Origin: Cyanodermella asteris
Taxonomy: Eukaryota > Ascomycota > Lecanoromycetes > Ostropales > Stictidaceae
DNA: 64,000 bases
Direction: 5' to 3'
Assembly (NCBI GenBank): GCA_900618795.1
Contig: UYJD01000013.1
Coordinates: forward strand, 205,397 to 269,396
This document shows positions 48,750-63,593 of the stretch, piece after piece. Position 1 is the stretch's first letter, and each line of letters starts with the position of its first letter. The notes below the pieces were generated by a model that was not told the origin of the DNA, searched no databases, and saw only the letters and a program-made list of their open reading frames with translations. Both the position numbers and the translations under genes were made by a program.

Positions 48750-50413
48750 CTACGCCTTCAATCTCGTCTCAAACTTCACCAACACGCCCTCCTGCTCCGG
48801 CATCCAATAATTCCTAACCTTCCAGCCTCCCTCCCCTCCCTCCCACTGCACATCCAACCTCCTCAGCACCTCCACCACGAACTTGCTCATTTCCATCATC
48901 GCCCTCGCCCGCCCACTACACCCGCGATCCCCCCTTCCGAAACCAAAGAAATGCCGTTTACGTTGCGTGACGATACTCTCGTCCACACCGCCCTCCCCGG
49001 CAAGCCAGCGTTCCGGGCGGAAAGCTTCGTGGTCGGCACCGAAGATCTCGGCATTGTGGTGGATTGTCGGTGCGCTCATGGCGATGTTGGTCCCCGCGGG
49101 GAGGAAGTGGCCGGTAGAGGGGATGGTCAAGCCGCCGGGTGGCGAGATTCGTTCGAGCGGGAGGCCGTTGGTGGGACAGAGGCGTATGGCTTCGTAGAGG
49201 GTGGCTTGGAGGTACGGCAGCCGGACCGCGGCATCGAAGCCGACGTACGCGCTATCCTCCAGAAGAGACGTGCATCTCCCGACTTCGTCCCGGAGCCTCG
49301 CCATGGCCTCGGGGTCGTGTAACAGGTAATAAAACGTCGCCGTCAAGACGGTCGCGGCCGGCGATCCGCCGGCCACGAACAGGTTCGCCATGTGATTCAC
49401 CATGTCCACGTACGTCAACGCGCCCGGATCGTGCTCGAAATCCGCTTTCAGAGACGTGTATATGCACGCCTCGTTTTCGTGTTCCGCCCCGTCGTACCGT
49501 CTCATCATCGCCTCCACCATGTCCACGACCTCCGACCCCGGATCCGCCATCCCACCGTAGCGGCGCAGAAACGCCATGACGGGCTTGTTCTCGAAGACGA
49601 ACGCGTTCAGGGCCGGCATTTGGCCGAGGATGGCGCCGTACCGGAAGCCGTCGAGGGTTCCCGTGATGATCTTGTCCATGTCGCCGCGCCGGCGCATGAA
49701 GCCGTATGGCTGGCTGAAGAGGAGGGCGCAGTTGACGTCGAAGGCCCAGAGGTGGAACCATTTGTAGAGGTCGATTGTCCGACCGCGGTCTTCGGACGTG
49801 CAGGTGAAGAAGCTGGCGAGACAGCGATCGAAGATGCCTTCGTACTGTCGAATGGCAGCCGGAGAGTACTTTGAGATGGATTGGGCGATGAGGCGCTTGT
49901 AGTGTGTTCGGTCCCGGCATGTCAGGGTCGTGTCGATGGGGACATTGTCGTAAAAAAGGCAGAAAATCCGGTAAAAATCGCTCTAACGAGGGAATACATG
50001 AGCTGACCAGCATCTTTGTGTTTTTTTTTGGGAGGAAATCTTGTGCGCAGGATTTGTGGATGACTTACTTTGCCACACTTTTCGCCAACTCCGTAGATGA
50101 CCGGCAACAGCTTGGGGTCTGAAATCACGACGTGATTTGGACCAGTCCTCACAACCGGTCCATATTCCTCGTGAAGCCGCCGTACCTTTGTCGAGCACTT
50201 GCCATCGAACACAAGATACAAACGATAGAGTCCGCTGAAATGAGCTAGAAAGGGTCCGGGGACATGCCTCAAAGGTCCTCCCAAAAGGGGCCAAATCAAG
50301 TGAGCGAGTGTCAAGCCAGCCAAAGCATAAATCACAGGAAAGAAAAGAGATCTGGGGCTAATGACAGCTTCAACGACATTGCTTGCAATGGATGAACTCC
50401 AAGAATTGTTCAT
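48750..50413 (-). CDS. Cytochrome P450 A (pisatin-demethylase-like group)
   Basis: Two exons on the minus strand, 50413-50069 and 49982-48750, separated by an 86-nt intron (GTAAGT ... TTAG, phase 0), give 525 residues. An N-terminal membrane anchor (about residues 22-45) and a proline hinge (HVPGP) place it at the ER. The family signatures are present: oxygen-binding helix I region (MVNHMANLFVAGGSPAATVL), ExxR in LYEAIRLCP, PERW, and the heme loop FGRGDRGCSG with its cysteine ligand. The segment ISDPKLLPVIYG before the intron and the general layout resemble pisatin demethylase-type P450s of fungal clusters, and the substrate is unknown. It lies tail-to-tail with RTF1 and upstream of P450-B in the same orientation. 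Confidence 0.92.
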
Positions 50414-51177
50414 ATTGACGTCAAATAAGCATAGTATGGGATGAAAGTCACAGGTTGTCCTGTTTGGGATTGAAACATCATCGACTACCGAGCAAGCCTA
50501 TTTTGCAGCATACAGCAGAACACTCATGTCGATCGCCAGTCAGCAGCGTGTGCGTCAAGTATTCATACATGGCTTTGGTTTTCAGCGTCTATACGAGGAT
50601 ACACGCTCCTGGATCTTTCTCACTGCCGGTCCAAGCTTGTAGAGAACGTCAACGATTGTCAAGATCACTGAGCTGGGGTCAGACTCGCTGAGGCGACTGC
50701 AACATTACGACTGCACCGGTAAGCTAGCCGTAGTCGGCATGATGGCATGATGCCCTCAGCCGTGGTGCTTTGGACCCAGTGGATATGCGGAAAGAACCCG
50801 GCTCGGTGGCGTCAAGGGAGTGCGCATAGCAATACCTCGGCGTCAGCTCCACTTCAGCTGCAGCTGAAGCCAAGGGCTTCCCATGACCGTTGCGCATAGC
50901 CTACAATGGCTCTGCGTTCATTCCGATACCTGTTGCATCTGCCTCGTTTCGAGTCATTATCTAGTATTGTTCTTGGCTAAGCGCCGTGGCTCCATGATGA
51001 CCAGCCACGCCGCCCCTGAGGGACCCACAGCGGGTTTCGGAGGGAATCCGCAGTCTGAGACGGCTGATGGATAGCGAACCTATCACGGGCTTGACATTGC
51101 AACTCTGGGAGCAGTCGATTCAACTTTGTGGATCTCGGAAGTACCAAATTCGGCTTGCGTCATGCACGCAAAACAAA
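50414..51177. promoter_or_regulatory. Promoter region of P450-A
   Basis: 764 bp lie between the P450-A start codon and the P450-B stop codon. No palindromic regulator site was recognised. Confidence 0.4.
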
Positions 51178-52714
51178 TCAGGCACATGATATTTTGCAGC
51201 CGTTGGCGTTCTTCGCAATCAGCTTCTGCTGGCCTGCATAGTCCTGATCGTCCCGGCTTTGCAAGGTTTTGACTTCTCTCGCAAGGCGCCAGAGGACATA
51301 GCTGGCTTCGTTCAAAGCCTTGTCCTGACCCAAACAGGCACGCTGTCCGCCACCGAAGGGCACGTACTCCCAAGCACTGGGTTTGATCTTCGTCCACCGA
51401 TCGGGGTCGAAACTCTCGACGTTGTCACCGAAGACTTCCTTGTCGCGATGTAGCGCGTAGAAGTTGCACATGATCCTGGTTCTGCATGGAACGAAGATGG
51501 GGCTGGTTTTGTCAGGACCGCCCCCGACTGGCAAGGTAGTATCAACGAGCGCGGCCCGGTCCATGCGGGAAAAGATTGGATACAGCCGAAGAGCTATTCT
51601 GGTCGTTAGCAAAAACACAATACTCAGGGAGAAAACTCCTACATTCTCGCAGCACATCTCGAAGCAAGGGTACCCCGCGCAACGCATCTGCGCTGGGGCT
51701 GTCTCCAAGTTCGCCGAGATCTTGCCGCAGTCTGTTCCAGAGCGCGGGAGAACGTGCGAGGAGGAAGACCGTGTTACTGATCAGTGTTGGTGTAGTGTCC
51801 TGCGCTGCCAGCGCCCCTTGAAGTACCTGGTTGCGAATTTCATGGCGGTCTGTAGTCTGCGACGTAACTGACTCAAGCAGACTGCGCTGATGTGCCTCGC
51901 CCCCGGAGCTTTCCTTTTCCAAGCTTCGGTTGACGTAGAAATCAACATAGCTCCACACCTTTTCCCAGTGCACTGTTGTCATTGACTTTGGTACCAAAAA
52001 TCGAAATGAACCGGTGATGATACGTAGTCCCATGCCCATCAACGATCCATTGAAAGCAGCCAGATATGTTTGAGAGTCCAAAGGCGCATCCGTTGCCCCT
52101 TGGCCGCTGAATACGCCGGGCGCCTGTCCGACGAGGAACTGTTGGGAGGAGTCGATGAACATGGTCGTGACCAGTGGCTGAAGGTCGAACGTAGAGCCGT
52201 CCTTGGGTATTTTGGCCATGAGCTGATCAACCAACTTGGCAAAGGATGAAAGATCTGAGACATTGTGCTTTGCAAAAGATGGCTGCAGCATAGCTCGAGA
52301 GCGTTCCCAGATCGCACCATCGGTCGTCAAAAAACCCTGTCCGCAGAAAGCTCCCATGGCCTCGCTTCGGATGGGACCAATTCCCCATTCGTTGGCTTTG
52401 GACGACAAGGCCGTTTTGATGTTATCCGGATGTACTGTCAATAAAACCGTCCCGCCAAAAGTGGTTGATTTCAGTGTGTGCGTATCCAACTCCTTGAAGA
52501 GGTTCGCCTCTCCTGGCAGTAGCTTGTTTGCGCCTCTGAGCTTCATATCATTCAAGAATAGGTCGGTACCGAGGAGGGGATCTCGACTCGGGCGGCTTCG
52601 TGGTGGGAGATATCCCCTCGACCTAGCTTGGGACCGCTGAGAGAGCTTCTTTGTGAATTGGTACAACGCAAGGAGCACCAGGCCGGCAAGAAATGAATTG
52701 AGTATGATTGCCAT
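51178..52714 (-). CDS. Cytochrome P450 B (CYP52-like, fatty-acid/alkane hydroxylase group)
   Basis: Two exons, 52714-51643 and 51593-51178, are joined by a 49-nt intron with a perfect GCTAAC branch site, which restores the ExxR helix as VLRESLRLYP; total 495 residues. There is a short N-terminal membrane anchor. Helix C shows IWERSRAMLQPSFAKHNV, and helix I shows GALAAQDTTPTLI, with the Asp-Thr-Thr pattern. PDRW and the heme loop FGGGQRACLGQDKALNEASY are typical of the CYP52/CYP539 group. Characterised members hydroxylate the omega end of alkanes and fatty acids. Its place beside an O-methyltransferase and UstYa genes suggests tailoring of a pathway product rather than primary lipid use, which is inference. 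Confidence 0.92.
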
Positions 52715-53349
52715 TGCGGATAGACAGGTTTTTAAGGAGGCGGTTGCAGCATGTCAAGTGCAGGAATTGCGGCGTCGAGCATGAGTGTGGGAAGAGTGGA
52801 GGCATCCCGAGCAAACAATCCTTGCAAGTAGCTAAGGTAAGCATGGCTCAGGTTCTCACGCAATGTCCGTCAGGTCAGCCGCATTGGAGGCCGCCTACTT
52901 CGTTGTCGTTGCACAGACGTGATTGTGACTTGTCCTATCCGCGCCACTACTCTCACAGGTGGAGTCGTGACCCGGGCGCAAGCCAACAAAGCAGGACTGC
53001 TCTTTCCGTAACCCCATATTCTCAAACAAGAGCAAGAGTAGCGATGTTCGACTCACGCTCCTCTGAGCCATTGGATTATTCTAGCATGTTTGCCGGAACG
53101 TTGTTGCACAAACGCACGTCTATGAAACGACCTTTCCGCCAGCCTTATTCTCCCCGGGCCCGGCTCATATATAATCCGCCTTCAGCAACAATCTTATTTT
53201 GTCGGACTCTCCTAAACCGCCTGTCATCCTACAGTCAAATCATGTTTACTCAGTCGTTGGCCATTGGCTAGAACTTAGCGAGTTCAAGCAATAAGAAGAA
53301 TCGTCGGCCCGCGCTGCTGGCTAATTTCCGGAGCCCCAACAGCTACAGG
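52715..53349. promoter_or_regulatory. Promoter of P450-B
   Basis: 635 bp between the P450-B start codon and the methyltransferase stop codon. AT-rich TATA-like sequence (TCATATATAA) occurs near 53164-53173. No other feature was seen. Confidence 0.35.
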
Positions 53350-54777
53350 TCACGACTCACACATGGTCAGACCGCTCCAAACTACCTCGATCACTGATAA
53401 CAGAGAATGTGGTGGCGAAACAATCCCTGTCAAGGTGAGACGCTCATCAACTGCGGCAATCAATTTCAGCCAATCCGCCTTGTCGCGTTCCTTGCCGTTG
53501 AACAAATGTTTCATGCTCAAATCATAGCCCCTGTATACGCACGGTAAGTGGTTATTCGGACGGATGGTGTTTCGACTGACCTTAAAAACTGCTCCTGGTA
53601 TTTGCTGAGAGTGTTTGGCTCTGGTAGGCAAATTTCATTTAAGATGATCCGAGCGCCATGTCGCAAGGCTGGGACTTGGTTCTTCAATATTTGTACCACA
53701 TAGCTGTCTGCCCAGTCATGCATGACGGAGCGAAAGAAATATACATCAGCGCCCAGAACCGTCTGTGGTGCAAAAAGGTTGCGGGGTTCAAACGTCAGCC
53801 GATCTCGAAGGTCTTCCGGCGGTTGGACGTCTTGGAGCACCTCGGGCAGGTCCTGCACGACGCCTCTCATCCGAGGATATTTCCTCAATATTGAAGCACA
53901 AACGAACCCCTGCGAGCCGCCTTGATCGACGAGCAAATCAATATTGTCAGTCTCCGACCATGGCAGGTTGTCGAGCAGGTGCGCCACATCCAGTCCAGGT
54001 GCGGCTTGCACTACCTTCATGGCATTGGCGAAGCGATGCGCTCGACCTGGATTTTGGCCTAGGACATCGAACAGAGCACCGCCATGTGCCAAGGCGAAGC
54101 CTGTCTCAGCCGGGCTGGATGCTTGAGGCCAGTTAATAAGGGCATCACGCGACTTTGCCTCTGAAGGGAGCATTTCTTCGCAAACAACAGCGAGCCAATC
54201 TCGAAGCTCTTCAGACTGCGCGATGGCCGCAGAGACCGCATTGTGCCTCACTATGTCTTTCCGGGGTTCCTCAAAAATCCGGTGGGCGATCGCAACTCGC
54301 AGAATGCGGCGCAGATTGTCGGCGCAGACTTTACACCGCGCGCTCAGTTCCTCGAATGAAACTTCTTCCCCAAGGTTCAATTTCTCTGCAATCTTGAAGT
54401 GGTTGATAATTTGCAGACTGCATAGGATGTTGTGCTTGATTCGAGATCAGAACTCGAATGGAGCATTTCAATATCAAGAGACATACCCGGGGACTTGTGA
54501 GATTGACTAGGTACGGAACTGGACCTAACAGGCTCGCGCTAAGCTCGTCGACGGCCTCCAACGTATTCTGCCGTGCATCTTCGAGATGCGTCGGTAGTTC
54601 GAGGGCAGGAGCTGAGCCCAGCTCAAAAGAAGCGAGGGTCTGCTGCTTAGCTGCGAGAAATTTCTGGATCGAGCTCACGCTTTTCTCAATGCGCGCCACC
54701 GCGTCTGAGCTCGGTCGCTGGCTCCACATCGTTCTCGATTCGCGTGAGTCTTGGGCTGAAGTCGTGTTTACCTTCAT
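53350..54777 (-). CDS. O-methyltransferase, COMT-like family 2
   Basis: Three exons, 54777-54487, 54434-53581 and 53530-53350 (introns of 52 and 50 nt), give 441 residues. An N-terminal winged-helix dimerisation domain (LCSLQIINHFKIAEKLNLGEEVSFEELSARC) precedes the SAM-binding domain. Motif I is a slightly altered LLVDQGGSQGF, followed by the DLPEVLQD acidic motif. The catalytic histidine lies in MHDWADSYVVQIL. The last exon, GYDLSMKHLFNGKERDKADW, is the usual C-terminal signature. Such enzymes methylate hydroxyl groups of aromatic or polyketide-like products in fungal clusters. GGSQG replaces the more common GGGxG, and activity should be retained, though this is not certain. It is divergent from UstYa-1. 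Confidence 0.9.
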
Positions 54778-55429
54778 GCGACTTGCGCATCAGGTTGCAC
54801 CTTCTACGGATATATGCATGCCAGCATGTTTTTGCACAGGATCCGTATTGGCCCACAGAGCGATGTTCAGCTGAGTGGAGCTATTTCCACAACTCCAACA
54901 ATTTTTCCGAGTCTAGGTAAAGCTGGATCCATATTCAACGCACATCTGATACATCGTTTCACCAATGCGGACCTTGCGAGCCGCGGCGCTGCGCTCAAGG
55001 CTGCCGCAGGATTGGTCCTCCTCGGGTAGGTAAGCGCTAATTTATGTTCGTCACCTTGCAGGGCCCACTTAGTCGGCATCAATACCACAACGAGCTATGG
55101 CTACATGCACTCCCATTCTCCCTGTCCATGATCACTCGACACTTGATGATCCTTGTCAGCTGTTGCAGTGGTTGGGGCTGGGGCTGCAACGATGGCGGAG
55201 TCATGGGTGGGTGTCATGAACCAAATTCAGCGAAATCTTTGGCATGGCCTATTCGTCACTGAGTAGTGCAGCAATCAAGGATATTGCAGGGCCGATGGTT
55301 TCGTTTTTCGTGGACCCGTCTTCAGCCCTCCGGACTCAATGTAGCTGAGTCTTGCCCGACAGTATCGCGGCTGCAGAAAAGGTCTTCGCTTGTCTCTGGG
55401 CAGTCATTGCCATATCCCCAACACACAGC
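54778..55429. promoter_or_regulatory. Divergent promoter, O-methyltransferase / UstYa-1
   Basis: 652 bp lie between two start codons facing away from each other, which allows shared control. No inverted CGG site was recognised. Confidence 0.4.
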
Positions 55430-56089
55430 ATGGCTCGATCCGAATACAAAGCTGTCCCGACAGATGAAAGCGATGTTGGATCACCACCAACGACTTTTTC
55501 CAACACATCTCGCCGGCGCAAGCTTCTCTCAATTATCGCTGTTATCTGCATTGTATTTCTCAACAGCCTGGCGAGCTTCTTCATCGGCCGCCATAGCGCC
55601 CTCGAGCCAACATCCCATGCGCTGCATCTCCCAATAATCCCACACACATTCAGATACAACCGCTCTTTCAGCTCAGCACCCGACGCCCACACAGACCGAT
55701 CCTGGCGAGAGCTTTTCCCGCTCGAGGGAGGCTTCTTCGTTCACCCAACAGTCGCACCGGAACGAAGCACATTCTCCGTCTTTCATCAACTGCATTGTCT
55801 GGACAATATCCGACGTGCCTATTGGATGAGCCACGACGCGGCGATCGAAGGCAAGAAGTTGGCCGATGAGGACGTACACGTCGATGTGCAACCAAGTCAT
55901 GTCCGACATTGCATCGATTTGGTCAGGCAGAGCCTAATGTGCAGTGCAGACACGACGCTAGAGGTAGTGGATAAGAGCATTAACGGTGTGCATGGCTTCA
56001 GGACAGAGCACATGTGCCGCGATTGGGGCGTACTCAAAGACTGGGCTAGTGAGCAGCAACTCAAGCGTCACGTGGAGCAAATTGTATAG
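55430..56089 (+). CDS. UstYa family oxidase 1 (DUF3328)
   Basis: A single exon encodes 219 residues from ATG 55430. A cytoplasmic N terminus (MARSEYKAVPTDESD) and one membrane helix (LLSIIAVICIVFLNSLASFFIG, about residues 38-59) precede a lumenal domain. Both family motifs HxxHC are present: HQLHC in FSVFHQLHCLDNIRRAYW, and HVRHC in HVRHCIDLVRQSLMC. UstYa proteins are fungal oxidases that form ether or C-C macrocycles and perform dehydrogenation or other oxidations in ribosomal peptide pathways. Some family members act in other pathways. Its 3' end lies 41 bp from UstYa-2, which runs the opposite way. Confidence 0.92.
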   Translation: MARSEYKAVPTDESDVGSPPTTFSNTSRRRKLLSIIAVICIVFLNSLASFFIGRHSALEPTSHALHLPIIPHTFRYNRSFSSAPDAHTDRSWRELFPLEGGFFVHPTVAPERSTFSVFHQLHCLDNIRRAYWMSHDAAIEGKKLADEDVHVDVQPSHVRHCIDLVRQSLMCSADTTLEVVDKSINGVHGFRTEHMCRDWGVLKDWASEQQLKRHVEQIV

Positions 56090-56130
56090 ACTATTCGCAA
56101 GACCAATATCAAACATGATCAGTTTTTGTA

Positions 56131-56992
56131 CTATGTACGCAATAATGGGTTCTTCATTACCGCAATCTCTTCTTTGGCTACCGTTCGATCAGCAATCGAG
56201 TCTTGAAGGGCGTCCCAATTGACGCATCGCCTTGGTATCAAGCGGGTATCCAGCATTGGTCGCTCCTGCTCCGCCCACCTGAACGTCGTGAGCGTCGTAT
56301 CCGCCCGACACATTGCAGCAGAGCGCAAAAGATCCAAGCAGTGATCTGGGAATGGATCAGCATTCTGAAACTAGCCTTCAACCTCGGTCACTTACCTGCA
56401 TGGATATCCCAGTGCTCCTGATCTTGCTCACGGAGCCCAGGGTGATAATGTTCTCGATAATTCCAATGCCGCAGCATTTTCTGCAAGAATGTGAGTAACT
56501 ACTAACTTCGTGTAGATAGACACTCGAGGAGCCTACAATGCAATGCAGCTCATGGAAGACACCTAGCCACGCCATATATCCGCCCTCCGGTAGCGCCACC
56601 GAAGACTGATTGCTCTGCACCAATTCCTCTCCACTCACGCGGATCGCCATGTTCGCGAGAAGGTCATGCCAGGCTTTATCCAGCCCTGGACTCGGTAGGC
56701 CGGCGTACGGGCTCTCTTCGAAGTCGGTATAGAAGCCCGTCTGGTATTCGATGTCTAGACCCGGGAGCGGATGGAGAGCTGTGCGTGGCGGAGCGAGCCT
56801 CGAGCGGAGGAGAGGGAAGAAGATAAAGGCGGTCGTCACGCTGTAGAGGAGGAAGAGGCTTGTGTGGAAGATGATTTGTGTCCGCCGACTTCGAACTTTT
56901 GGGTGAGCTGGGCGATGTTCCTCCGTTGGAGATTTCTCTGAGTCTGGGAGTAATGCGTAGCTTTCGCCGTCCATACTCCTGGTAATGGCCAT
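56131..56992 (-). CDS. UstYa family oxidase 2 (DUF3328)
   Basis: Three exons, 56992-56537, 56480-56396 and 56345-56131 (introns of 56 and 50 nt), give 251 residues. The N terminus is cytoplasmic, with one membrane helix (IIFHTSLFLLYSVTTAFIFFPLL). The lumenal domain shows HELHC, the family block MLRHWNYREHYHPG created by the second exon, and HADHC followed by LDLLRSAAMCRADTTL. The intron positions between the two HxxHC motifs are common in this family. It differs clearly in sequence from UstYa-1, so the two probably act as different steps or as a heteromeric pair, as known for UstYa/UstYb. It is divergent from the candidate precursor gene. Confidence 0.93.
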
Positions 56993-57506
56993 GCCGATGG
57001 TGACAGTTGTATAGATAGCTCGAGAAATAGTTTCTGGATCGATCAGACAATGAAGAGACGAGCAAGTCGCTCCGCAGATTGGACAACAGAGTAGCAGGCT
57101 GGAGAGCTGAGCTGTTCCGTACTACCAAAAGGAGAAGAACTTCCGAATCATTCGTGCAAGGATTGGAGCCAACTGGGCGAGTGGGTGCGAATCAAGTCAG
57201 CACACACACATGACCGCACTAAAACTCAGCTCTGGGTCTCGAAAGCCATCGAAATGAAGCGATCGGCCGTACACCCATGCTATCAACGGTGCCTGATACA
57301 GGTCGCGAGCAGCACATCGATGTGCCTATCCTCGTAACCTTGACAGGCTGAGCGCCACGTGATTCAGTCTGCTTATATAGAAGTCTTAACAGCCCTTCGT
57401 CGATTGACCCTACCGCTCACCAATCGTCGAATTTACAAGCCCTCTCGATTTCCAATACTTTCGGCAGGAGCAGTTCATTCAAACCATAATCACAGGAGCC
57501 ATCAGT
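56993..57506. promoter_or_regulatory. Divergent promoter, UstYa-2 / candidate precursor
   Basis: 514 bp lie between opposed start codons. A TATA-like GCTTATATAGAAG at 57370-57382 sits about 130 bp before the precursor ATG, pointing to strong regulated expression of the small gene. Confidence 0.45.
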
Positions 57507-57820
57507 ATGCGTACCGCCGTCATTATACTTGGCCTGCTTGGCTTCGCTCTCGCTGCACCCATCGTGCAAAGAGGTATGAATGATCCTGCCGTGTTGCGAA
57601 GTAGTTTCGGGAGTTCAGCCGTCACTAATGCCGAACAGATGCCGAAGCTGCTGCTGTCGCTGCGGACGACCGTGAGCAGACCCCCCGCAGGGCGTTGCAC
57701 CCTGTCTTTGACACAACAGCTAATGGATTGGCAGTGTCAGCGGACGAGTACGTGGTTTATCCTGATGTTGACCGGGACGAGGATGTGATATATGCCTACC
57801 ACGGTATCAACGACAAGTGA
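57507..57820 (+). CDS. Candidate RiPP (dikaritin-like) precursor peptide
   Basis: Two exons, 57507-57573 and 57639-57820, joined by a 65-nt GT-AG intron (donor GTATGA, acceptor GAACAG), give 82 residues. The N terminus MRTAVIILGLLGFALAAP is a clear signal peptide, and the intron falls right after it, at residue 22-23. An acidic, Ala-rich pro-region and a dibasic TPRR follow. The C-terminal 30 residues are rich in Tyr, Val and Asp, including EYVVYPDVDRD and VIYAYHGIND. A secreted leader, small size and a tyrosine-led segment fit the substrate expected beside UstYa oxidases. Unlike ustiloxin-type precursors there is no tandem core repeat. Both the splice and the role are inferences; a plain small secreted protein is the alternative. 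Confidence 0.55.
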
Positions 57821-58903
57821 GGATGGAGAGCAAGGTTAGGATGAAGCGGAGGGCAGCGACCAGGCGCAATGGGTAGCCAATGGACCTTGGAGCTTCGCTT
57901 CTATCTCTGTTAAAGGTTGAACTAGATGTGCTGTGGTCAAAGTATCGTGCCAGCAAATGCATCAATAGCCGCTGGCCTTCTCTCGTGAACTTGCCGTCCG
58001 CAAAACATTCCGAAATGTTATGCAACGAAGAATACATTCGGTGCAGTGCCGAGTCGTCCAGTAGTCGGGCTGAACTTGGATAGAATCCTTACTAGGAGTC
58101 TGATGTTGCCGAGGAGTTCTCCAATGAGATCCTGGCGGCTCCTTACCGTGTGAGTCCAACGCCGTACGGCAAACGCGCAATCACACTGTCGTGATGCTTC
58201 GTCTCCGGCCAGCCGGCACACAGACTCGCAGATTCTTGCGCCATCCACAAGGCTGAGCAAGCCTCAGACCTTATCGAAGCCAAAGGATCGAACGGAAGCC
58301 GGTTGCTGAGGGTTCGTTGAGTGGGGAATATTTGCCGTTGGCATCAGCCGTGAGGTTGATATTTGATACACGTACTCCCCTGCCTGCGAAAATGCAAGCC
58401 ACTTCACGTCAGCTTCGCTTCAACTTGGTTCGACACTAAGTTATCATCAACGGTCAAGGGTATCTTGCCTGAACACGAGCGAGGCTCCTTTCCGACACCA
58501 AGGATCGCCCTGCACTACTGTGCATGGCGTATGCGCTGTAAGCCCAGCAACGCCGCCATGTCAAGTGTGCATCAATTTGAGGATAGCCATCACAGACCGA
58601 AAGGACCCTCGACTGGGATGCAGACAATCTCACCCAGTGCGAGCCTTCGTTTCGAGGCTCTTCAGTGAAGCCCCTCGAAGGAAGACTCGATAGAGGAGAG
58701 GTTACATTGTTCTACGCCCAATCTCACGGTGGCTGCCCTGGGTGATATCAAAGGCGAGTTCATCTTGCTAGATGTATCCGTCCGTGTCCCTGTATGTCTC
58801 TGCGAGGTCTTGTACGATTTGCCTTTCTTTAGCGTGAGAATCTTGTCATCTCAGTGGCCTCAACAACTATCCTTGACATTTTAACTTCTATTTCTTTTCA
58901 AAG
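57821..58903. other. Intergenic stretch within the cluster, no gene supported
   Basis: It holds the 3' region of the small gene and the promoter of the rhodopsin-like gene. No frame with a motif is present. Confidence 0.5.
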
Positions 58904-60233
58904 ATGCAGTACGAGCTGTCGAAGAGCAAGTGCGCGGCGGATGTCATTCTTCCATTCTTCGCCACGGTGGCCGTAGTGCTCCGCTTCGTGGCGCGAAGAA
59001 AGCAGGATGTACCACTTCGAGGAGACGACTGGTGCATACTGGTCGCTTTGATTCTTGCTCTCGGAGTCTGCATCGCGGGCATATACGCTGCAGCAATCGA
59101 TATTTACGGCGTACCAGCACAGCTCCTGACCTATCCCGAATGGATTATCCACCAAAAAGTATTCCCATCGCCACCGTATCGACGGATTACGGGCTCCAGA
59201 CTGAACTGACACGATCCATAGTTCCTCTTCTCGGACGTGCTTGTCTGCCACACCGCCTATGCCTTCATCAAAATCTCGATCTTGCTTTTCTACAAGCGCA
59301 TCTTCGTGACTCGCACATTCAAGATCGCTGCCAACATCATGATGGGCTTTGTTGTGGCGTGGTTGATTGCTGCGACTTTCGTACGTTGCCGCAAAGCTTC
59401 ATGAACCAGCATTGAGGTGCTGATCAATGCTCGCAGGGCCATATCTTTGCGAGAACACCCGTGTCGCTGTTCTGGACCGTGTTACCCGCCAAATGGAGCC
59501 TTGTCGGCGGCATCAATTACGGCGTCTATCTGTCCTCGATGGCCGCCATCGACATCTTGCTGGACCTCGTAACGCTTTGCCTGCCGCTTCCAGTCATCTA
59601 CAAGCTGCACGTCAAGACGACTCGCAAGATCCAGCTCGTTCTGATCTTTGCTCTCGGAGTTTTGTAAGTCGACAGCCAACACACACGTGCAAAATTGACG
59701 CTAACCGCCACAGTTGTGTTGTTGCGTCAGGCGTCCGTTTCTACTGGACCTGGGAGCTGTATCTGCAGCTTCAGGGCAAGCTTCCACCAAGCACAGTGGC
59801 CCCAACAAACAGCTGGAATGACATCTGGGCACACATAGAAGCTTGCTCATCCATCGTCTGCGCCTGTCTGCCGACTCTGGCACCGCTTTTCGCCGGCGGC
59901 TCTTCCCTGGAGTCTCTCGCCGCAAGCATGAAAAAGGCTGTCAGCAGATCTACACTTCGTCTGCGCTCCCTTGGAAGGTCCAGTGGCCGTTCATCTGGTT
60001 CGAAGGCTAGCGAGAATAACGTGGCGCAGGCTCCCGGTAATGCGTCGTTTGGTGCCTCGTCCGATGGAAATGGCAAGTACAGCAAGCGTGGGTGGTACGA
60101 ACTCAACGGCCCGAATGATCGGGCTCAGGCTGTTGGCGGAAACAAGAAAGGCGTGGTTGTAGATGAGGAAGCTCTTGTTGAGAGTCCCAGAGCTATCGTG
60201 GTCCCAAAGACCACCGCCACGGAGCATTCTTGA
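58904..60233 (+). CDS. Rhodopsin-domain integral membrane protein (PTH11/SAT4-like)
   Basis: Four exons, 58904-59158, 59222-59380, 59437-59663 and 59714-60233 (introns of 63, 56 and 50 nt), give 386 residues. About seven hydrophobic segments are visible, among them VALILALGVCIAGIYAAAI, YAFIKISILLFYKRIFVTRTFK, IMMGFVVAWLIAATF, IDILLDLVTLCLPLPVIYKL and LVLIFALGVLF. The blocks FIKISILLFYKRIF and LPLPVIYKLHVKTTRKIQL are hallmarks of the fungal rhodopsin-domain family, often found in metabolite clusters and also related to PTH11-like receptors. A hydrophilic Ser/Arg-rich tail of about 120 residues lies in the cytoplasm. Function in clusters is not established for most members; transport, sensing or an enzymatic role are all possible. 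Confidence 0.9.
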
Positions 60234-61144
60234 GATCGGCTTCAATGAACATCAGTGATCAGATATAGGAAAGAATCGATTTCCAGGCCAAATAGCATGC
60301 AAAAAAGGCAGGCCTATCAAGTACAGAAGAAATTTGCGAAGATACTGCAACTGAAACAGTCTCCAGCCGCCATGGCGGTCTTCCAATCCGTATGATGGAG
60401 ATGCGCTCGACGAAATTCACGTCGTCTACTTCCTCACCCAGTTAGGCACAATTTACGTACGTGTCTCTCCATCGAGCCCGTGCTATATGTCGGCCGCGTA
60501 TTCCGCCTGTAGAGAGGCACCGGAGACTTGCATGAATCACAAGTCGGTCAGAGTCAGCGCCGTCAGCCCTAGCCAGGGTGCCTGGGTAGCTACGACAAGG
60601 GGCGAAGCCGCCCCCACCACTCTTCAGGTGATCAGAAACAGACCCACACGAGGCCCACACTGGTCAGGGGTAGATGTCCCCATATCTCCACGTCCTGTGT
60701 TGCTTGATAGCGGCATCGGCGAGGCTGGGTGCGTTAGTTGTGGATGTAATGCTACCATACTCGGAGTTGATCGAGAGTGAATCGTTGGAGGTGATTGGTA
60801 TGGACGGATTAGCGCTACTTACGTAGGTGAAGGGATGGGGACAATGCCGTTGAGATGGCGATGCCTGACGGGGACCCTGAGAAGGTCTCAGCTGGTCAAG
60901 CGTCTCTGCTTAGCAAACTCTAAGACAGACGGCTTCTTGGAACAGCCTCTCGTTGGTGTCGGAGACGTACGAAAGTGTCCGGCTCTTGACCATGCTCTGA
61001 AATAGACCTCACCGGATGGCACGCGGCATAGTTCGGCTGTGATACTTACCCGCTTGGATTTCCGACAACGACACCTGTTGAAGCTTGAACGGCGGCGCTC
61101 ATAACACATGTCCGTCAGCTTGACGTCCCGGTTCATCTTCAAGC
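60234..61144. other. Intergenic stretch, nothing seen
   Basis: It contains the promoter of the MFS gene. No supported frame, repeat or RNA gene. Confidence 0.5.
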
Positions 61145-62755
61145 ATGTCCTCTCAAGAGAGAGGTGAATCGACCTCTATACCCACAAAAACCTTGAACTC
61201 GCCGGAAAAAGGCAACGAAAAGCAGTACACTCTTTGCATCTCCGAGCAAAGCACCATCCACCAAAGCTCAGACGGCTCTCCAAGCCAGAGCTCCTTCCTA
61301 ATAGGATGGCGCCTCCAAGTCCTCAACTTCGCCCTGTGCATCGCCCTATTCCTCAGCTTCTTAGAAACCACAATCGTCAGCACCTCCCTCCTCTCAATCA
61401 CCAACGATTTCGGCAGCTTCTCCGAATCAAGCTGGGTCGTCTCCGCGTACCTCCTCGCCTACACAAGTTTCCTGATACCGCTTGCGAAGCTATCAGACAT
61501 CTTCGGCAGGCGAGCAGTACTCTCGTTCAGTCTCGTGATGTTCATTGCGTTCTCGGCGGGCGCGGGTTGGAGCACGAGTATCACGCAGCTATACGTCTTT
61601 CGAGCTCTGCAGGGTGTTGGGGGCGGCGGGATCTATGCTTTGGTGTTCACGGTTCTGACCGAGATGGTGCCGTTGGAGAAGTATGCTTTCTATGGAGCTG
61701 TCGTTAGTAGTACGTTTGCGTTGAGTAATCTGCTGGGACCCATTTTGGGGGGAATGGTCAATGATCACACGACGTGGCGGTGGATCTTTTGGCTGAATAT
61801 ACCAGCTGGAGTTGTTGCTTTAGTACTTTCGTGGATCGCTCTTCCGAGGAGATTCCCAGTTCACAACATGGTTATACGGCATGATGGGAAGAGCGGCATA
61901 CCTGTGTCGTGGAGCAGCTTCAAGCGTGTCGACGTTTGTGGAACGGTCCTGTTACTAATGTTCACCGTCTTCCTTGTCACCGCAATCGAGATGGGCAATA
62001 TCCAGCTCCCATGGTCCAGCCCAACGATGGTGGGTCTTCTCTGCGCTTCAATGGTCTGCCTGCTCCTCCTCGGCCTCTGGACCTGGCTGCAACGTTCAGG
62101 TTCGCGGGTAGAACCTATCCTGCCCTGGCGTATCCTCAGCAATCGTTTCACCATGGGAGCCATCCTCAACGCATTCTTCGTCAGTGGTGCTTTCATTACT
62201 TGTGTCTTTAACATGCCCCTTCGCTTCCAGGTCATCAACGGCGAGAGTCCATCCCAAGCTGGCTATCGTTTGCTTGCACTCACACTTGCGACGCCCGTCG
62301 GCTCCGGTTTGGCTGGAGTGTTGACTCAAAAGGCCAATTTACCACCAATGCACGTGTTGCTGTTGGGAGGTGTAGTCCAGACTCTCGGCTTGGGCTTGTA
62401 CACTGGGATCTGTGCAGGCAGCGTAGTAGAGCTTCCGGCACAGTACGGGCTGGAGGTGATCACGGGCCTCGGGTTCGGCATCTCGATTAGCACCGTCATC
62501 ATGATTGCTCCGCTCATTTTCGAGACCCAAGATCGAGCGGTCGCGATGGGTGCCATTGGACAATTCAGAGTGTTGGGAGGGAGCATTGGAACATCTGGAA
62601 TGGCCAATATCCTAAGCAAGCTCGTGAACGAGAGGATGGGAAGTACGCTTTCTGCCGAACAGATGACCGCTCTGCAGCAGAGCATTAGTGAGCTGAGCGA
62701 GCTGCCTCGAGATGTTCAAGATGCATATCGGAGGAACTATGCCGAAGGATTCTAG
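61145..62755 (+). CDS. MFS transporter, 14-TM drug:H+ antiporter type, stop before last helix
   Basis: The product up to the first stop has 536 residues. DHA2-type motifs are clear: LDxT-like FLETTIVSTSLLSI in helix 1, motif A LAKLSDIFGRRAVL, motif B FRALQGVGGGGIYAL, and motif C LSNLLGPILGGMVND. The family normally has 14 helices. Here the frame ends at TAG 62753-62755 (AYRRNYAEGF), just where the last helix should start. The same frame continues for 32 codons to TGA 62852-62854, and these encode a textbook helix with a basic end (WLVTALSIMAIVVTLLMIER). The gene therefore carries a nonsense codon, a base error or a readthrough site. Likely role: export of the cluster product. Confidence 0.9.
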   Translation: MSSQERGESTSIPTKTLNSPEKGNEKQYTLCISEQSTIHQSSDGSPSQSSFLIGWRLQVLNFALCIALFLSFLETTIVSTSLLSITNDFGSFSESSWVVSAYLLAYTSFLIPLAKLSDIFGRRAVLSFSLVMFIAFSAGAGWSTSITQLYVFRALQGVGGGGIYALVFTVLTEMVPLEKYAFYGAVVSSTFALSNLLGPILGGMVNDHTTWRWIFWLNIPAGVVALVLSWIALPRRFPVHNMVIRHDGKSGIPVSWSSFKRVDVCGTVLLLMFTVFLVTAIEMGNIQLPWSSPTMVGLLCASMVCLLLLGLWTWLQRSGSRVEPILPWRILSNRFTMGAILNAFFVSGAFITCVFNMPLRFQVINGESPSQAGYRLLALTLATPVGSGLAGVLTQKANLPPMHVLLLGGVVQTLGLGLYTGICAGSVVELPAQYGLEVITGLGFGISISTVIMIAPLIFETQDRAVAMGAIGQFRVLGGSIGTSGMANILSKLVNERMGSTLSAEQMTALQQSISELSELPRDVQDAYRRNYAEGF

Positions 62756-62930
62756 AATGGGATGTGGTTGGTAACGGCCTTGAGCATCATGGCCATCGTC
62801 GTCACGCTCCTGATGATCGAGCGAAAGCCGCGACGTATGCGAGATAAATCGTGATATGCTATCTTTTTGACGAGCTTCGTTGAAGACTGCGTTTTCCGCC
62901 ATATGACCCGATGGTAGCTGAACGAGATTC

Positions 62931-63593
62931 CTATTCGATACCTTGATCTTCACAGCAATAGGTGATATTTACTGTAAGCTCCATCCTCATCGCGGCATCG
63001 TCCGGACGCACATCATTCGTAATCTGAATGACCTCGCCATGTGAGGTATTTGCAATCTTAGCCGTATCATGCGCATCCGCATAATACAACCTATAATAAC
63101 TCATCTCATCGTAAACCAGGTCCTCAAGCATGAAAAGCCGATACTTCTCCGGCACTTCCGTACAGTTATTCGCCAAAATCATCGTATTGTGCGCGCCCGT
63201 CGTGTTGTACTCTTTCGTACTCAGACTCAGACATCGGTACTCGTCGCCCGCAGGCCTGAGAATCCCGAAGGGCGTGTTGCTGGGGTCTATGGCCGGGTCG
63301 TAGCCGGGCGGAAGCGGGTGGTTGTTGTCGTTGTAGCATGTGGCGAACTCCCATGTTTGTGGGGCGAGGGCCGAACCGTTACTGTACTGTGACACCAGGA
63401 CGTGGTCGTGGTGGCCGTCGAGGCCTTTTTGTTTGACGCCGGAGAGGATTCCGATATTGATGGTGGGGTCGCTGTCGTCGTGGGCGTCGCGGCGGAGAGC
63501 GAAGGTGCCTCCGTAGCTCCCGCTGCAGTTGACGGGAGTCTGAGTTAGGACTGGGATTACCAGGATGGCGGCGAGACCGAGGAGTCGCAACAT
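62931..63593 (-). CDS. Secreted protein of unknown family
   Basis: A single exon encodes 220 residues with a signal peptide (MLRLLGLAAILVIPVLTQ). The mature part has few cysteines (NCSGSYGG, ATCYND, YRCLSL, NNCTEV and the pair YCCEDQ near the end) and several N-glycosylation sequons (NGSA, NTTG, NCTE, NTSH, NITY). Alternating hydrophobic residues suggest a beta-rich fold. I do not recognise the family. It converges with the MFS gene. It may belong to the cluster or simply mark its right border. Confidence 0.75.
   Translation of the reverse strand: MLRLLGLAAILVIPVLTQTPVNCSGSYGGTFALRRDAHDDSDPTINIGILSGVKQKGLDGHHDHVLVSQYSNGSALAPQTWEFATCYNDNNHPLPPGYDPAIDPSNTPFGILRPAGDEYRCLSLSTKEYNTTGAHNTMILANNCTEVPEKYRLFMLEDLVYDEMSYYRLYYADAHDTAKIANTSHGEVIQITNDVRPDDAAMRMELTVNITYCCEDQGIE

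What the first reader, a model, noticed from the sequence alone, without database searches (positions are those of the whole stretch)
48750..63593. UstYa-centred metabolite cluster without a PKS, NRPS or terpene synthase
Two P450s of different classes, a COMT-like methyltransferase, two UstYa (DUF3328) oxidases, a small secreted-type gene, a rhodopsin-domain membrane protein and an MFS exporter lie together. No large backbone synthase is seen, so a ribosomally made peptide is the simplest backbone. UstYa pairs next to a small precursor are the hallmark of dikaritins (ustiloxin, phomopsin, asperipin types). A CYP52-like P450 is an unusual partner and would point to a new product type.
Basis: partly seen in the sequence, partly recalled or inferred. 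Interest (0 to 1): 0.85.

Follow-up and report, generated by a model that had tools for sequence, protein, structure and literature searches.

The report
Fungal cross-linked-peptide cluster, one-copy precursor
A fungal gene cluster most likely makes a small cross-linked peptide from an ordinary gene-encoded precursor that carries its active stretch only once, a form that current genome surveys, which look for many repeats, would overlook.

Summary
48750-63593 carries two P450s, a COMT-like methyltransferase, two UstYa (DUF3328) proteins with both HxxHC motifs, an 82-aa gene with a hydrophobic N-terminus, a fungal-rhodopsin-domain protein and an MFS exporter, with no large synthase inside the cluster. 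Two results make the small gene the likely backbone. (1) Its only match in one large protein search, from the lichen fungus Bathelium mastoideum, holds two copies of the same 24-residue tail separated by a Kex2 site (KR). (2) The same genome has a paralogous cluster on contig C3 with the closest paralogs of the methyltransferase and of the UstYa pair; there a Kex2 repeat precursor (nine copies in two adjacent frames) sits where the small gene sits. I conclude it is a dikaritin-type RiPP cluster with a one-copy precursor; surveys that require three or more repeats would miss it. Against this: a fatty-acid-synthase pair lies 12 to 28 kb right of the window, part of that flank is unreadable, and no relative of the small gene was found in eight other fungi that keep the UstYa pair. 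Product, cross-link and expression are untested.

The parts
48750..50413 (-). Cytochrome P450 'a' (525 aa; exons 50413-50069, 49982-48750)
   Evidence: PF00067 E 4.4e-41; model
51178..52714 (-).
   Evidence: PF00067 E 3e-39; model; best non-self places C4 36% and C3 33%
53350..54777 (-). COMT-like O-methyltransferase (exons 54777-54487, 54434-53581, 53530-53350)
   Evidence: PF00891 E 1.1e-21; model (stop codon from the ORF list); closest paralog 48% at C3:842887-843729
55430..56089 (+). UstYa1 (219 aa, one exon): membrane-type helix 26-56, HQLHC at 119-123, HVRHC at 157-161
   Evidence: PF11807 E 2.5e-25; motif residues invariant in 41 aligned sequences; AlphaFold2 model pLDDT 81.5; C3 paralog 43%
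56131..56992 (-). UstYa2 (251 aa, three exons): HELHC at 147-151, HADHC at 179-183
   Evidence: PF11807 E 2.6e-44; model; alignment of 30 sequences
57507..57820 (+). Candidate RiPP precursor, 82 aa (exons 57507-57573, 57639-57820): hydrophobic N-terminus, dibasic RR, one C-terminal core DEYVVYPDVDRDEDVIYAYHGIND plus K
   Evidence: Homolog P0001 with two KR-separated copies (21 and 19 of 24 core residues identical); same position as the repeat precursor on C3
58904..60233 (+). Fungal-rhodopsin-domain membrane protein (386 aa, four exons)
   Evidence: PF20684 E 4.3e-47; a member of the same family lies in the same place on C3
61145..62755 (+). MFS transporter (536 aa)
   Evidence: PF07690 E 2.7e-45
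62931..63593 (-). Protein of 220 aa with a hydrophobic N-terminus, unknown; membership in the cluster uncertain
   Evidence: No Pfam family

Best explanation
It is a dikaritin-type RiPP cluster. The 82-aa product of 57507-57820 is the precursor. It enters the secretory path, and a Kex2-type protease acts at its dibasic site (the core itself begins about 17 residues further on). The UstYa1/UstYa2 pair, membrane-anchored copper enzymes by analogy with CctR, oxidatively cross-links the tyrosine-rich 24-residue core; the COMT-like methyltransferase and the P450s decorate it and the MFS protein exports it. Shown here: the genes, the motifs, the homologous two-copy precursor, the paralogous cluster with a repeat precursor, and the pairing of the two UstYa types in other fungi. 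Inferred: secretion, protease cleavage, copper use, cross-linking, order of steps, and membership of P450a, the MFS gene and the last gene.
For: Homolog of the small gene with the core duplicated and a KR between the copies. Paralogous cluster on C3: the best of 29 non-self methyltransferase matches (48%, E 8.7e-81), and of the 22 loci these merge into, only that one lies within 10 kb of a UstYa locus; the best UstYa1 paralog (153.8 bits; next place 45.1 and 36.4 bits over two exons); a UstYa2 paralog (94.4 and 48.5 bits over two exons; the C5 place has one match of 94.9); the second-best non-self P450b place; a rhodopsin-domain gene; all round a precursor with nine copies of an AYPDAY unit in two adjacent frames, three and six. 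Both precursors have a phase-1 intron of 65 or 67 bp just after the hydrophobic N-terminus. No open frame longer than 577 codons in C3:838500-868499. UstYa1-like and UstYa2-like proteins share one contig in 8 of 10 named species or strains found in both searches, with adjacent locus tags in Botrytis aclada. Double HxxHC motifs, the metal site of CctR (PMC12435403, part 1 of 3 of the text).
Against: One core copy only, so the repeat hallmark is not met in the window. The only tyrosinase match on this contig is 114 kb right of the window end, and no S41 peptidase match is on this contig. A fatty-acid-synthase pair with citrate synthase lies to the right and part of that flank cannot be read. DUF3328 proteins also occur in non-ribosomal and polyketide clusters (PMC12048977 section 22). 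Sequence likeness between the window core and the C3 repeat unit is not significant in the gapped test (1112 of 5000 shuffles as good). The nine C3 copies lie in two frames parted by a stop codon, in a stretch I take for an intron but did not resolve. The C3 rhodopsin-domain match is far from the closest of its large family. No expression data.
Confidence: 0.83

Rival explanations
1. The UstYa genes tailor a non-ribosomal product: the P450s, methyltransferase and UstYa pair are the left arm of a larger cluster built round the fatty-acid-synthase pair and citrate synthase to the right, or round a synthase in the unreadable part; the small gene is incidental.
For: Acyltransferase, citrate synthase, fatty-acid-synthase alpha and beta, a P450 and a TauD-family dioxygenase at C19:274434-299244. 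UstYa enzymes also act in non-ribosomal and polyketide pathways (PMC12048977 section 22; PMC12435403). A CYP52-like P450 would suit a fatty-acyl substrate (recalled).
Against: The paralogous cluster on C3 has the methyltransferase, UstYa pair, P450b-like and rhodopsin-domain genes and a repeat precursor, and no open frame longer than 577 codons in the 30 kb read (terpene-type synthases, which can be short, were not looked for). The small gene is conserved with a duplicated core in another fungus.
Confidence: 0.1
2. The small gene encodes a linear secreted signal peptide, pheromone-like, cut by Kex2 and a dipeptidyl peptidase, and is not a substrate of the UstYa enzymes.
For: DAEA- and AEAADQ-like spacers after basic sites resemble alpha-factor processing (recalled). 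Only 22% of repeat precursors in the 2020 survey had DUF3328 genes nearby, and it includes linear mating factors (PMC7329392 abstract).
Against: It starts 515 bp from UstYa2 in a divergent arrangement, and the same place on C3 is held by a repeat precursor beside the paralogous UstYa pair. Repeat precursors annotated as pheromones are, with three exceptions, not beside DUF3328 genes (PMC7329392 abstract).
Confidence: 0.06

Closest known systems
Asperipin-2a cluster (aprA, aprY, aprT, aprR)
   Same: Tyr-rich core, UstYa-type oxidase, transporter, no tyrosinase or peptidase among its four genes (PMC6514808 passages)
   Different: One UstYa gene there, two here; no P450 or methyltransferase among its four genes; a reductase there, none seen here
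Ustiloxin B cluster (ust)
   Same: UstYa/UstYb pair; a P450 in the pathway figure; core flanked by ED and KR in UstA, and ED also precedes VIYAYHG here while KR follows the first Bathelium copy
   Different: 16 YAIG repeats and a required tyrosinase UstQ there; one 24-residue core and no tyrosinase match nearer than 114 kb here
Phomopsin cluster (phom)
   Same: UstYa-type proteins (five) and a methyltransferase
   Different: Eight repeats, tyrosinase PhomQ, alpha-N-methyltransferase PhomM; here a COMT-like O-methyltransferase family protein
Cyclochlorotine CctR (DUF3328, copper)
   Same: Membrane helix plus luminal helical domain with two HxxHC motifs; the window UstYa1 model has the same order of parts
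   Different: Non-ribosomal cyclopeptide substrate

Membership tests
Dikaritin RiPP (DUF3328-defined) | DUF3328/UstYa protein with two HxxHC motifs as class-defining enzyme (as cited in PMC12048977) | tested here: met
   PF11807 twice over cut-off; motifs in both. DUF3328 is not exclusive to RiPPs
Dikaritin RiPP (DUF3328-defined) | Precursor gene close to the UstYa genes | tested here: met
   Small gene starts 515 bp from UstYa2; its role as precursor rests
Dikaritin RiPP (DUF3328-defined) | N-terminal signal peptide on the precursor | tested here: inconclusive
   Hydrophobic MRTAVIILGLLGFALAAP read by eye; no signal-peptide predictor was run
Dikaritin RiPP (DUF3328-defined) | Oxidatively cross-linked peptide product | not testable with these tools
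   Needs mass spectrometry or NMR
Kex2-processed repeat protein (KEP, Umemura 2020) | At least 3 tandem repeats of 8 or more residues between Kex2 sites (PMC7329392 section 13) | tested here: not met
   One core copy in the window; two in Bathelium; nine, in two frames, in the C3 counterpart
Ustiloxin/phomopsin subtype | Tyrosinase in the cluster | tested here: not met
   PF00264 genome search: only match on this contig is C19:383621-384340, 114 kb right of the window end; unreadable letters not covered
Ustiloxin/phomopsin subtype | S41-family peptidase in the cluster | tested here: not met
   PF03572: 5 matches in the genome, none on C19; unreadable letters not covered

The most novel reading that the evidence does not exclude
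A dikaritin subtype whose precursor carries a single 24-residue core, perhaps born by fusing two neighbouring repeat units after loss of the Kex2 site between them, so that the UstYa pair puts cross-links into both tyrosine clusters (YVVY and YAY) of one long peptide. Such one-copy precursors could explain DUF3328 clusters in which no precursor has been found.
Probability: 0.35. Interest if true: 0.72.

Novelty: new variant of a known kind. Interest (0 to 1): 0.62.

Why it matters
Surveys find fungal RiPP precursors by their repeats. A 2025 lichen survey (PMC12048977; passages and section 22 seen) found no conserved repeats in two DUF3328 clans and named a single core peptide as one possible reason. 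This window gives a concrete one-copy candidate with a two-copy homolog in a lichen fungus and a repeat counterpart in the same genome, so the idea can be tested, and searches can be changed to look for UstYa neighbours with a conserved tyrosine-rich tail instead of repeats.

Tried and rejected
Considered and rejected: that the small gene is a chance frame (homolog at E 5.5e-17 with conservative changes); that the methyltransferase gene is broken (my first models gave stops because I allowed only C/T before the AG acceptor; a 52-bp GT-AG intron gives an open frame without any change of base, and the match to the C3 paralog breaks at the same place).

Tried with weak or no result. Window core against the C3 repeat unit: ungapped 319 of 5000 shuffles as good for the whole mature part and 106 of 5000 for the core; gapped 1112 of 5000; so the shared YPD is not counted as evidence. 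First half of the core against the second: 292 of 5000; the fused-unit idea stays a suggestion. Core against the C4, C19:882-kb and C11 repeat units: 4503, 1141 and 2001 of 5000. P450b neighbours of UstYa: 3 of 14 loci (P 0.005) was a count on the best-scoring loci, the weaker rows dropped; with all 34 non-self loci it is 3 of 34 (P 0.056). Solved structures: no sequence match to the UstYa1 alignment at E up to 1 and no fold match at E 0.001 or better. Papers holding the core letters: none. UstYa with rhodopsin: 4 papers listed, by title unrelated, not opened. The repeat scan used the 3-kb loci of 30 of the 68 UstYa matches plus the longer stretches fetched by then, so four repeat precursors outside the window (three, one) is a lower bound; a frame in L004 was flagged and not resolved, and one in L040 did not look like a precursor.
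Full report
What is there. The window lies at C19:205397-269396 of a 28.5-Mb genome in 25 contigs; its introns and protein families are fungal. From 48750 to 63593 I built nine gene models: P450a (-), P450b (-), COMT-like methyltransferase (-), UstYa1 (+), UstYa2 (-), an 82-aa gene with a hydrophobic N-terminus (+), a fungal-rhodopsin-domain protein (+), an MFS transporter (+) and a 220-aa protein of unknown kind (-). Pfam confirms seven of the nine; the 82-aa and 220-aa products match nothing (the methyltransferase was scanned as two pieces, of which the larger matched). The left neighbours are a Plus-3 domain protein and a serine carboxypeptidase S28, so the cluster begins near 48.7 kb.

UstYa genes. 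Both carry two HxxHC motifs. In UstYa1 the six motif residues are invariant in an alignment of 41 sequences (the window's and 40 of the 63 hits). In UstYa2 the first motif is invariant and the second at least 90% conserved in 30 sequences (the window's and 29 of the 67 hits). The AlphaFold2 model of UstYa1 (pLDDT 81.5, pTM 0.65) has a membrane-type helix at 26-56 and the two motifs on helices 116-139 and 155-171, the order of parts described for the copper enzyme CctR (PMC12435403; I read part 1 of 3). No solved structure resembles it by sequence or by fold at E 0.001.

The small gene. Its spliced product ends in ...RRALHPVFDTTANGLAVSADEYVVYPDVDRDEDVIYAYHGINDK. A search of 5.8 billion proteins at E up to 10 gave one match among 9 candidates: P0001, a hypothetical protein M1821_000735 of a Bathelium mastoideum MAG, E 5.5e-17. 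P0001 holds the 24-residue stretch twice, with KR AEAADQ between the copies. The two Bathelium copies agree in 22 of 24 residues with each other and in 21 and 19 of 24 with the window; the changes are V/I and D/E. A repeated core with a Kex2 site between the copies is the mark of ustiloxin-type precursors, so the conserved tail is the likely core. A search of the own genome at E up to 10 found only this gene.

The mirror cluster. The genome has 68 UstYa exon matches, about 50 genes in 34 loci by a simple merging rule. Relatives of both window UstYa proteins lie side by side at C3:848.8-850.0 kb. For UstYa1 this is by far the best non-self place: 153.8 bits, against 45.1 and 36.4 bits over two exons for the next. 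For UstYa2 it has 94.4 and 48.5 bits over two exons; a C5 place has a single match of 94.9 bits. The best of 29 non-self matches to the methyltransferase piece is C3:842887-843729 (48%), and of the 22 loci these merge into it is the only one within 10 kb of a UstYa locus. The P450b paralog at C3:858032-859429 is second among non-self places. A rhodopsin-domain gene lies at C3:852.6-853.6 kb, but it is far down that family's list, so only its position counts. Between the UstYa pair and the rhodopsin-domain gene, where the window has the small gene, C3 has a precursor that starts MQISKHLLLFVSAVSAAVLPVR and carries nine AYPDAY units, eight of them as DAEAVAYPDAY. They lie in two neighbouring frames, three and six units, parted by a stop codon in a stretch that I take for an intron but did not resolve. 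Both places show a convergent UstYa pair followed by precursor and rhodopsin-domain gene on one strand; the pair is inverted between them. Both precursors have a phase-1 intron of 65 or 67 bp just after the hydrophobic N-terminus. In the 30 kb read on C3 the longest open frame is 577 codons, too short for a PKS, NRPS or fatty-acid synthase; short terpene-type synthases were not looked for. C3 also has an alpha/beta hydrolase and an aminotransferase for which I saw no counterpart in the window's cluster; P450a matches only the P450b-type gene there, and the MFS gene and the 220-aa gene match nothing at E 0.01 in the 30 kb.

Other controls in the genome. Repeat precursors with Kex2 sites also lie beside UstYa genes on C11 (7 units), C19:882 kb (3 units) and C4 (5 units). 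In the loci read, then, repeat precursors are the rule and the window's one-copy gene the exception. P450b-type genes lie within 10 kb of a UstYa locus at 3 of the 14 best-scoring other loci, where 2.6% of the genome would qualify (binomial P 0.005); with all 34 non-self loci it is 3 of 34 (P 0.056), and on C4 other genes lie between.

Other species. Two (Periconia macrospinosa, Diaporthe sp. PMI_573) have different contigs. Trees of the aligned hits (rows under 130 aa dropped, support values not read) place the window UstYa1 with Thelotrema lepadinum and the C3 copy near Viridothelium virens.

The right flank. Beyond the window lie an acyltransferase, a citrate synthase, a fatty-acid-synthase alpha/beta pair, a P450 and a TauD-family dioxygenase, an arrangement known from alkylcitrate pathways (recalled). 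Part of the flank reads N and I did not pursue it. The C3 cluster suggests that the UstYa module can stand without such genes, so I treat the right-hand set as a separate cluster, not proven.

Mechanism. Shown: gene content, motifs, conserved core, mirror cluster. From published families: UstYa proteins are needed to cyclise the cores of ustiloxin, asperipin and phomopsin (PMC7329392 section 7; PMC6514808 passages); CctR uses a binuclear copper site. Inferred: signal-guided entry to the secretory path, cut at the RR site, cross-linking of tyrosines in YVVY and YAYHG, tailoring by methyltransferase and P450s, export by the MFS protein.

Place among known things. By the enzyme-based definition it is a dikaritin-type cluster. 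By the repeat-based KEP definition (three or more repeats) the precursor fails, which I tested. It lacks the tyrosinase and S41 peptidase of the ustiloxin and phomopsin type; asperipin-2a also lacks a peptidase (PMC12048977 passages). I found no paper holding either core sequence, and saw no paper on this gene set in the listings of searches (25 of 40 listed), 52 and 53; five papers were opened in part: PMC12048977 (passages, section 22), PMC7329392 (abstract, sections 7 and 13), PMC12435403 (part 1 of 3), PMC6514808 (passages), PMC9632046 (passages). Most subscription journals are not covered. I rate it a new variant of a known kind.

Noticed in passing
right flank, C19:274434-299244 (L031-L034): Acyltransferase, citrate synthase, fatty-acid-synthase alpha/beta pair, P450 and TauD-family dioxygenase: probably a separate alkylcitrate-type cluster.
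   Followed up: partly
whole genome G000: About 50 UstYa genes in 34 loci of a 28.5-Mb genome, with repeat precursors beside them on C3, C4, C11 and C19:882 kb.
   Followed up: partly
C15:1258-1264 kb, C24:635-638 kb, C19:408-411 kb, C3:853-859 kb: P450b-type genes lie within a few kb of fungal-rhodopsin-domain genes at these four places, as in the window; no chance control was made.
   Followed up: no
C15:361-365 kb and C12:849-856 kb: UstYa genes with an S41 peptidase match about 2 and 6 kb away: candidate ustiloxin/phomopsin-type clusters.
   Followed up: no
62931-63593: 220-aa protein with a hydrophobic N-terminus and no Pfam family at the right edge of the cluster.
   Followed up: no
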